From the NCBI GenBank assembly GCA_019639135.1, contig JAHBSL010000001.1, positions 186,001 to 250,000 on the forward strand: a DNA stretch of 64,000 nt, given 5' to 3'. The stretch is from Acidobacteriota bacterium. Lineage in GTDB: Bacteria; Acidobacteriota; Blastocatellia; Pyrinomonadales; Pyrinomonadaceae. Shown here piece by piece: positions 27,748 through 29,453 of this stretch (the stretch's first letter is position 1; every line of letters starts with the position of its first letter). The position numbers and the translations under genes were made by a program. The notes under the pieces are model-generated. The model was not told where the DNA came from, ran no database searches, and saw nothing but the letters and a program-made list of their open reading frames with translations.

Positions 27748-28142
27748 GCCGGGGCGGCGAATTGGATCACGGCGAAATGTGCCCCGCATGGGTCTGAGCA
27801 AAGGACGATGCGGCCGACTCCGGGAGCATCGAAAGGCCCATGATTCACGATTCCGCCATTTGCCCTGATCGCTTCAGCCGTCGTATCAGCATTATCGACC
27901 GCGATGTAGGCGGTCCAATTCGATGGCGGCGGCTCCGGCCCCCAGCTCGCATCTATCGCCATCATCCCGCCGACCGCACGACCGCCTATATGGATCTCGT
28001 CATACGCCACCGGCGAGACCTTGCTCTTCGCAAGCTCCCATCCGAACATCTCTGTGTAAAAAGCCTTGGCCGCTTCAAGATCCCGCGAGGCAAGCTCGTG
28101 CCAGCAAATCGTGCCGTGCGTTGGCACTGAAAATTCCGTCAT
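27744..28142 (-). CDS. VOC (glyoxalase/bleomycin resistance) family protein
   Basis: The start at 28142 (MTEFSVPTHG) has AGGAGA just upstream. The 132-residue protein has the paired beta-alpha-beta-beta-beta modules of the vicinal-oxygen-chelate fold: WHELASRDLEAAKAFYTEMFGWE and, in the second half, DPCGAHFAVIQF. Metal-binding or substrate residues cannot be assigned from sequence alone. It was the third gene of a VOC-DUF1579-VOC operon; an IS110 element now separates it from the other two, 23 bases upstream of its ATG. Its ribosome site survived. Confidence 0.87.
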   Translation of the reverse strand: MTEFSVPTHGTICWHELASRDLEAAKAFYTEMFGWELAKSKVSPVAYDEIHIGGRAVGGMMAIDASWGPEPPPSNWTAYIAVDNADTTAEAIRANGGIVNHGPFDAPGVGRIVLCSDPCGAHFAVIQFAAPA

Positions 28143-28185
28143 TTCAATTCTCCTATGATGAATTTCTACTCCATTAGCAAAGAAT

Positions 28186-29196
28186 TCACTCTGCCAATTC
28201 GAAATTGTTAAAGTCCGCAAACACCCAATTGTTGGTGAGTGTGCTGTAGATTATTTTCAAATACTTTCGGGCCAATGCGATTTTGGCTTTTCCGTGGCCG
28301 CGTCTCATCTTTATCTGTTCGTAATACCGTTTGAGATAATCGTTTTTCCTGATCGCGGCAAGAGAGCATTGGACCAATGTTGTCCGCCCCGTCTTGTTTC
28401 CGTGTTTTGTTATCCGCCCGTGGTTGACGGTTTCGTTCGAATTCGACACTCGCGGCACGATTCCGAAATAGCTCGCCAGTTTGTCTGCCGATCCGAAGTC
28501 TTTTACCTCGCCGATGACCGACAGCAGAATGCCCGCCGATAAGCTCCCGATCCCCGAGATCGAAACCAGGTTGCGGTAACCTGTCAACTTTTCGCTCTCT
28601 GTCGCGATCGCTGTGTCGAGCTTCTTGATTCCCGCTTTCAAAGACCTGATCTGCTCGATTATTATGTCCAGCTCGATCCGTTCGATTTGTGTCCATTCTT
28701 CTTCGAGAACTTTTTCCAATCCCTTTTCCGATGCCAGGCTCGTTTTCCTCAACTTTCGTCCGTTTGATACCGACAGTGCGTGTATCTTGTTTATAAGACT
28801 CGTTTTCAATCTCACCAGTTTCGTCCTTGTACCCACCAAAGACTGCACCTTATCCGCCTCTTCCTTCTTTGCTCTGACTTCCGGCAGCATGTCCGCCTTC
28901 AAAAAGAGCGCCAGATTTATCGCGTCGTTCCGATCCGTTTTCTTGACCGAGTTCTTCACCACGTCAAACTGTCTCGGATTGACCAAAACCACCCGGCCGC
29001 ATGCCGCTCTGACCTGCTCGACAAACCATCTCGTGTTGCCTGTCGCCTCAACCGCTATCTCATCCGATAGCGACAAGCCCGCGACAAAACGCTCGATCTC
29101 GCAGAGCTGATACTTCGCGATTGTCGGCCCCTCTTCTTCTGTCAAATAACAAACCGTGATCTGTGTCGTGTGCAGATCCACTCCGATATATCTCAT
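28186..29196 (-). CDS. IS110-family transposase (DEDD RuvC-like and Tnp_20 domains)
   Basis: The ATG at 29196 (MRYIGVDLHTTQ) has GGAGGG 10 bases upstream. The 336-residue protein has the N-terminal RuvC-like DEDD domain (Asp in GVDLHTTQ, Glu in EATGNTRW, then TDRNDAINLA) and the C-terminal transposase_20 region with the catalytic-serine neighbourhood (SISGIGSLSAGILLSVIGE, YFGIVPRVSNSNE). IS110 enzymes act as RNA-guided recombinases that move a circular form using a bridge RNA. The reading frame is complete, so the element may be active. It lies inside the 28165-29433 element. Confidence 0.95.
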   Translation of the reverse strand: MRYIGVDLHTTQITVCYLTEEEGPTIAKYQLCEIERFVAGLSLSDEIAVEATGNTRWFVEQVRAACGRVVLVNPRQFDVVKNSVKKTDRNDAINLALFLKADMLPEVRAKKEEADKVQSLVGTRTKLVRLKTSLINKIHALSVSNGRKLRKTSLASEKGLEKVLEEEWTQIERIELDIIIEQIRSLKAGIKKLDTAIATESEKLTGYRNLVSISGIGSLSAGILLSVIGEVKDFGSADKLASYFGIVPRVSNSNETVNHGRITKHGNKTGRTTLVQCSLAAIRKNDYLKRYYEQIKMRRGHGKAKIALARKYLKIIYSTLTNNWVFADFNNFELAE

Positions 29197-29433
29197 CCCG
29201 TTTTCCCTCCAAATCTCTTGTTGTCGTCCGGCTTTGGAGTAGATTAACGGTGGCAAATGTGCCATTCTCCTATTCGAGGTCAACTCTTTCGAGCTGCCTC
29301 ATGGTGGCGGTGCGGGCGAGAAGCGGGATCGGAGTTAGTCTCCTTAACGCGGTCATTAAGCCGCATGAAAAAATTCAGCTTCAAGCCTCTCTACTCCAAC
29401 GTCTTTCAACATCAGAGTACATCGCCACCGTTT
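29197..29433 (-). ncRNA. Candidate bridge RNA of the IS110 element
   Basis: The ~237-base non-coding stretch upstream of the transposase is where IS110-group elements encode the bridge RNA that pairs with target and donor DNA. A 19-base sequence at 29236-29254 (GGAGTAGATTAACGGTGGC on the + strand) is nearly what results from joining the element's two ends: GGAGTAGA also lies at the downstream end (complement of 28165-28172) and ACGGTGGC at the upstream end (complement of 29424-29431). The RNA thus carries a complement of its own circle junction. GGAGTAGA also occurs in the RNA itself at 29390-29397. No transcript boundaries or target guides could be fixed. Confidence 0.55.
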
Positions 29434-29453
29434 AATTCATCATGCCATCTCCT

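What the first reader, a model, noticed from the sequence alone, without database searches (positions are those of the whole stretch)
28165..29433. IS110 element whose leader RNA region matches its own joined ends
At 29236-29254 the + strand reads GGAGTAGATTAACGGTGGC. GGAGTAGA is also found at the transposase-3' end of the element (complement of 28165-28172) and ACGGTGGC at the other end (complement of 29424-29431). Their circle junction would therefore be complementary to one continuous stretch in the non-coding leader, which is where IS110-group elements encode the bridge RNA. In the well-studied IS621 bridge RNA the two donor guides are split and bind opposite strands; a continuous complement would be a variation. 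Seen: the sequences. Known: bridge RNA biology of IS110. Inferred: that this is the donor guide.
Basis: partly seen in the sequence, partly recalled or inferred. Interest (0 to 1): 0.75.

Follow-up and report, generated by a model that had tools for sequence, protein, structure and literature searches.

The report
Bridge-RNA insertion sequence targeting ribosome-binding sites

Summary
The IS is 1,299 bp (28152-29450), not 28165-29433. Four copies in this genome, relatives from several other phyla and an empty site in a sister genome show insertion at AAGG^AG, a Shine-Dalgarno sequence: 35 of 36 left flanks read AAGGAG, and 17 of 19 right flanks have an ATG 4-9 nt downstream.

The leader does seem to encode a bridge RNA, with guides elsewhere: TAAGGAG and ATAGGAG on the 3' sides of two look-alike loops, and 5' guides matching the other flank. 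Handshake dinucleotides agree in 9 of 12 elements. Guide order and ends are IS1111-like; the RNA lies upstream of the transposase as in IS110.

29236-29254 is the 3' strand of the RNA's closing helices. It pairs with leader segments x1 (29424-29432) and x2 (29390-29399); both helices covary. No RNA data exist.

The parts
28152..29450 (-). Insertion sequence proper, 1,299 bp (AGATGGC...CATCATAGG); cut point within AGGAG inferred
   Evidence: Four genomic copies with different flanks; empty site in G019
29449..29453 (-). Left AGGAG: AGG from the target, AG from the IS; core reads CT on the + strand
   Evidence: 35 of 36 distinct left flanks are AAGGAG
28150..28154 (-). Right AGGAG: AGG from the IS right end, AG from the target; restores a Shine-Dalgarno for the VOC-like gene (ATG at 28142)
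29434..29443 (-). Left subterminal inverted repeat ATGATGAATT (7-bp terminal extension AGATGGC outside it)
   Evidence: read from sequence; ATGATGA part conserved in close relatives
28155..28164 (-). Right subterminal inverted repeat AATTCATCAT (3-bp extension AGG outside it)
   Evidence: read from sequence
28186..29196 (-). DEDD transposase/recombinase, 336 aa, intact
   Evidence: Pfam PF01548 and PF02371; NF033542 IS110 RNA-guided transposase; IS621 and ISCro4 hits
29234..29399 (-). Predicted bridge RNA core (x2 to x2'), 166 nt; a longer form would start at x1 or upstream
   Evidence: folds; covariation
29424..29432 (-). x1, AACGGTGGC: pairs with x1' at 29246-29254
   Evidence: p<0.001; covariation
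29390..29399 (-). x2, TTGGAGTAGA: overlaps the 3' arm of the 5' stem-loop (29392-29419) and is the partner of x2'
   Evidence: p=0.002; 7 of 10 pairs with double changes, 0 of 500 shuffles
29365..29377 (-). 5' side of target-binding loop (complement of right target, top strand)
   Evidence: across elements, guides fit own targets better than permuted ones, p=0.0018; weak in the window's own copies (4-5 of 9)
29340..29346 (-). 3' target guide TAAGGAG (pairs with CTCCTTA of the target)
   Evidence: same sequence as the target; AAGGAG conserved in relatives except L024
29338..29339 (-). Target-loop handshake dinucleotide AC
   Evidence: equals the donor dinucleotide after GGAG in 9 of 12 elements, permutation p=0.0036; in the window copy only the first base agrees
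29304..29308 (-). 5' donor guide GCCAC (complement of donor ATGGC except next to the core)
   Evidence: positions 2-4 match in 10-11 of 11 elements
29267..29273 (-). 3' donor guide ATAGGAG (pairs with CTCCTAT of the donor)
   Evidence: identical to the donor right end in all complete relatives
29236..29254 (+).
28165..28173 (-). x3, TGGAGTAGA: right-end copy complementary to x2'; seen only in the Acidobacteriota relatives and L024

Best explanation
This is a bridge-RNA insertion sequence of the IS110/IS1111 superfamily that inserts at Shine-Dalgarno sequences. The leader RNA folds into a 5' stem-loop, a target-binding loop and a look-alike donor-binding loop. In each loop the 3' side pairs with seven bases starting at a CT core (target CTCCTTA, donor CTCCTAT), and the 5' side pairs with the bases on the other side of the core. 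The recombinase exchanges strands at the core, so the target's AAGG stays upstream, the IS brings its own ATCATAGG to the downstream gene, and that gene keeps a ribosome-binding site. In this lineage the second half can also pair with the right-end copy x3 when RNA is read across the circle junction. Shown from sequence: ends, target, empty site, guide matches and covariation. Inferred: that the RNA is made, binds the recombinase and guides it.
For: Target: 35 of 36 distinct left flanks AAGGAG, the other ATAGGAG; ATG 4-9 nt after AGGAG in 17 of 19 right flanks; single AGGAG in the empty site of G019. Guides: AAGGAG and ATAGGAG in equivalent loop positions from Acidobacteriota to a Wolbachia phage; 5' target guides fit their own targets, p=0.0018; handshake 9 of 12, p=0.0036. 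Closing helices: x2:x2' p<=0.005 in the window's lineage, L016, L104 and L117, and about 0.06 in L025/L118, 7 of 10 pairs doubly changed; x1:x1' p<=0.009 in the window's lineage, L016 and L104, 0.049 in L117. Recombinase: NF033542, PDB hits to IS621 and ISCro4.
Against: No RNA or transposition data. In the window's own guide the 5' target side fits its four sites weakly (4-5 of 9). L024 lacks AAGGAG in its target loop and lacks x2. x1:x1' is not significant in L025 or L118. Loop parsing and guide boundaries were set by eye, with a linker of 0-2 nt allowed in the test (the permutations allow the same). The alignments behind searches were assembled from segments picked for pairing, so their shuffle counts overstate support; one search corrects for the search. 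Many left flanks were first found with a pattern containing AAGGAG; the repeat without it added one site, ATAGGAG.
Confidence: 0.78

Rival explanations
1. One reading: 29236-29254 is a continuous donor guide that binds one strand of the circle junction on both sides of the join.
For: Both 8-mers flank the junction in the right order. x3 (GGAGTAGA) is invariant in the Acidobacteriota relatives between variable flanks. In L024 the right end pairs with the leader over 15 bp while the leader copy x2 is lost. The 31 bp between the halves are mostly the inverted repeats, which could fold away.
Against: A separate donor loop with ATAGGAG and GCCAC already accounts for the donor, with handshake agreement. 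x3 is absent in L104, L117, L025 and L118, where x2:x2' persists. The donor core would not be paired by this stretch.
Confidence: 0.1
2. Junction-sensing RNA switch (an extension of the best explanation): transcripts that cross the circle junction close with x3:x2' plus x1:x1' around the inverted-repeat hairpin, whereas transcripts starting inside the leader close with x2:x2'; the two forms differ in bridge-RNA or transposase output.
For: Minimum-energy folds give these two structures in L003, L009, L011, L012 and L016; x1:x1' and x2:x2' both covary and cannot nest together.
Against: Transcription starts are unknown; folding from the core gives other structures in L003, L009 and L010; lineages without x3 cannot do it this way.
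Confidence: 0.2
3. Read-through protection: x1 and the 5' stem-loop enter the RNA when transcription comes in from the host operon; x1:x1' then misfolds the leader and limits transposase expression.
For: Insertion at ribosome-binding sites makes host read-through likely; x1:x1' competes with x2:x2' in the folds.
Against: No expression data; x1 would also be in junction-promoter transcripts if they start near the core.
Confidence: 0.15
4. Ordinary IS110 element with chance leader repeats and no RNA guide.
For: No Rfam match.
Against: Covariation, guide-target fit and fold z-score.
Confidence: 0.03

Closest known systems
IS621 bridge RNA system (IS110 group; PMC11208160, PMC11208158)
   Same: DEDD/Tnp recombinase, RNA upstream of the transposase, two look-alike loops, CT core, a donor pairing window of seven bases, handshake bases after the 3' guide, mismatch tolerated next to the core
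   Different: Loops face the opposite way relative to the transposase: here the 3' guide matches the right end and the target's left side; 10-bp inverted repeats instead of 2-3 bp; a closing helix joins the RNA ends; the target is a Shine-Dalgarno sequence
IS1111 group seekRNA elements (ISEc11, ISPa11, ISKpn4; PMC11187229)
   Same: Subterminal inverted repeats, 7-bp left and 3-bp right extensions, guide complementary to the top strand placed before the one complementary to the bottom strand
   Different: RNA is upstream, not downstream, of the transposase; C-terminal motif is G--P----SN instead of S(T)G
ISMtsp17 (PMC11187229)
   Same: Named there as an IS1111 relative with an upstream non-coding region
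   Different: Its target, RNA and transposase were not compared here
Wolbachia phage WO mobile element (MN180250.1, L117)
   Same: 44% identical transposase, same AAGGAG target, same 3' loop guides, same x2:x2' pairing
   Different: No right-end GGAGTAGA

Membership tests
IS110/IS1111 superfamily | DEDD RuvC-like domain plus Transposase_20 domain | tested here: met
   PF01548 1.6e-12, PF02371 1.5e-20; NF033542 226.6 bits against cut-off 140; IS621 in PDB 2.7e-21
IS110/IS1111 superfamily | Circular intermediate with abutted ends | not testable with these tools
   needs reads or PCR
IS110 group | Long non-coding region upstream of the transposase | tested here: met
   254 nt upstream (29197-29450); 34 nt downstream (28152-28185)
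IS110 group | Bottom-strand guide precedes top-strand guide; inverted repeats absent or 2-3 bp | tested here: not met
   order reversed by the loop parse used here; 10-bp repeats
IS1111 group | Subterminal inverted repeats of 7-17 bp with 7/3-bp extensions | tested here: met
   ATGATGAATT/AATTCATCAT, AGATGGC/AGG, if the cut lies at AGG^AG
IS1111 group | Top-strand complement precedes bottom-strand complement in the RNA | tested here: met
   5' sides pair with the top strand, 3' sides with the bottom strand
IS1111 group | Long non-coding region downstream of the transposase | tested here: not met
   only 34 nt downstream; PMC11187229 lists a few upstream exceptions
IS1111 group | GL-P----S(T)G motif | tested here: not met
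   GIVPRVSNSN; SN in 10 of 11 clade members checked
IS1111 or IS110 group | Position in the transposase phylogeny | not tested
   no ISfinder reference set at hand
Bridge RNA / seekRNA | RNA loops complementary to own target and donor | tested here: met
Bridge RNA / seekRNA | RNA is transcribed and bound by the recombinase | not testable with these tools
   needs RNA sequencing

The most novel reading that the evidence does not exclude
A bridge-RNA lineage that has fixed on the Shine-Dalgarno sequence as its target across several phyla, combining IS1111-type ends and guide order with an IS110-type upstream RNA, and whose RNA closes with different partners depending on whether it is read across the circle junction, so that it reports whether the element is excised.
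Probability: 0.2. Interest if true: 0.8.

Novelty: new variant of a known kind. Interest (0 to 1): 0.62.

Why it matters
The bridge-RNA elements described in the papers read here target things such as REP sequences, attC sites or short linear sites. This lineage targets the ribosome-binding site itself, a site in front of very many genes, and rebuilds one with its own right end, which could explain how it spreads with little damage to translation. It also mixes traits used to separate IS110 from IS1111, so it bears on how the RNA moved between the ends of these elements and how loop orientation is set. A natural system with seven-base 3' guides on both loops and a covarying closing helix could inform work on compact recombinases.

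Tried and rejected
RNAduplex comparison of leader ends was too permissive because it allows long internal loops; replaced by ungapped helices. Viral contigs: no relative by protein; the left-end pattern there hit ordinary ribosome-binding sites plus ATG. Phylum-wide protein searches in Acidobacteriota and Planctomycetota added no new member; the Nitrospirota search added L118. Rfam: nothing. First attempt at the x1 alignment (A5) had L117 one base out of register and was replaced by A6. Literature search for IS110 with Shine-Dalgarno or ribosome-binding-site insertion found none in the library, which does not prove absence elsewhere.

Full report
OBSERVATION. The 19-mer GGAGTAGATTAACGGTGGC is at 29236-29254 and occurs once in the window, none expected by chance. 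Its halves are complements of 28165-28172 and 29424-29431. The match is not chance: with the 3' leader segment shuffled 1,000 times (dinucleotides kept), the best helix with the left-end zone has p<0.001 and with the right-end zone p=0.005.

ENDS. The element is present three times identically and once decayed (94%) in the same genome. Flank comparison shows that the shared sequence runs from AGGAG-ATGGC-ATGATGAATT on the left to AATTCATCAT-AGGAG on the right. A sister genome, G019, has the locus uninterrupted at 89% identity: CGTAGAGGAGAATTGAAATGGCGG, one AGGAG. The IS is therefore 28152-29450 if the cut follows the CT core as in IS621 and the 7/3-bp rule of IS1111 (PMC11187229); the AGGAG overlap leaves an ambiguity of a few bases.

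TARGET. Full-length relatives were found in the same family (L009-L012, L016), Phycisphaerae (L024), Nitrospira (L025, L118), a sphingomonad plasmid (L104) and Wolbachia phage WO (L117). All sit at AAGGAG. Of 36 distinct left flanks, 35 read AAGGAG and one ATAGGAG; one search was biased by its pattern, one search left AAGG out of the pattern. On the right, 17 of 19 distinct flanks have ATG 4-9 nt after the rebuilt AGGAG, mostly opening long frames. In the window the downstream gene is a VOC-like protein (named from its sequence, not by a search) starting at 28142. The target is thus the Shine-Dalgarno sequence, and the IS restores one with its right end.

GUIDES. The leader has two loops with the same plan: 5' strand, stem-loop of the form GGC..GACC, 3' strand. 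The 3' strands read TAAGGAG (29340-29346) and ATAGGAG (29267-29273), matching target and donor over seven bases from the core. The 5' strands match the other side: the donor side GCCAC against ATGGC, mismatched only next to the core, where IS621 also tolerates mismatch (PMC11208160); target-side guides fit their own sites better than permuted sites (p=0.0018), although the window's own guide fits its four sites weakly. The two bases after the target guide equal the donor's first two bases in 9 of 12 elements (p=0.0036), the handshake rule described for IS621 (PMC11208158); in the window's own copy only the first agrees. Relative to the transposase these loops are reversed compared with IS621 and ordered as in IS1111 seekRNAs (PMC11187229), although the RNA lies upstream.

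It lies after the donor loop. Its first half (x1') pairs with x1, its second half (x2') with x2, which overlaps the 3' arm of the 5' stem-loop. Search-corrected p-values for x2:x2' are 0.005 or less in the window's lineage, L016, L104 (14 bp of wholly different sequence) and L117, and about 0.06 in L025/L118; for x1:x1' 0.009 or less in the window's lineage, L016 and L104, 0.049 in L117, not significant in L025/L118. In hand alignments 7 of 10 x2 pairs and 9 of 9 x1 pairs show double changes, 0 of 500 shuffles as good on the covariation score; those alignments were assembled for the purpose, so I rest the claim. The two helices cross, so they are a pseudoknot or alternatives.

In the Acidobacteriota relatives and L024 the right end carries GGAGTAGA (x3), invariant between variable flanks. 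RNA folded from x3 across the junction closes with x3:x2', the inverted-repeat hairpin and x1:x1' in L003, L009, L011, L012 and L016, whereas RNA starting at x2 closes with x2:x2'. In L024, x2 is gone and the right end pairs with the leader over 15 bp. L010 argues the other way: the base before GGAGTAGA pairs in x2 but not in x3. The lineages without x3 show it is not a general requirement. Whether x3 acts in RNA, in DNA or through the protein is open.

CLASSIFICATION. The recombinase is IS110-family by NCBIfam and Pfam and related to IS621 and ISCro4. The clade has SN where the more distant IS110-family proteins checked have SG or SA. Ends and guide order are IS1111-like, RNA position IS110-like, so I file it in the superfamily and not in either group.

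Noticed in passing
L036:1501-1640 and L041:1501-1700 (G114): Solo left ends that stop inside the leader's own guides: L036 ends at the target guide (GTGAAGGAG), L041 at the donor guide (GAATAAGAG, one base off), then host sequence follows. This looks like recombination between guide DNA and the right end, i.e. self-targeting.
   Followed up: partly
29434-29453 (-): The captured AAGGAG plus the left end makes a start site with ATG 5 nt downstream and a very short frame (MMN stop here; 2-15 codons in relatives). It could catch ribosomes at the left end, or be a by-product of the inverted repeat.
   Followed up: partly
L150 (G103:C26): One insertion at ATAGGAG instead of AAGGAG, the same seven bases as the donor side.
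   Followed up: no
L024:1740-1990: The Phycisphaerae copy has a replaced 5' stem-loop and a target loop without AAGGAG (CTTAATAAG, resembling its left flank CAATAAG); its right end is at a contig edge.
   Followed up: partly
G103, 12 left ends, most at contig edges: A Blastocatellia genome with at least 12 copies that break the assembly; all but one at AAGGAG.
   Followed up: no
L025 and L118, left end: Next to the left end a local hairpin CCAC(C/A)GCGA(G/T)GTGG shows a compensatory change between the two Nitrospira copies.
   Followed up: no
L004 (G000:C40): Decayed fourth copy with stops in the transposase but intact ends.
   Followed up: no
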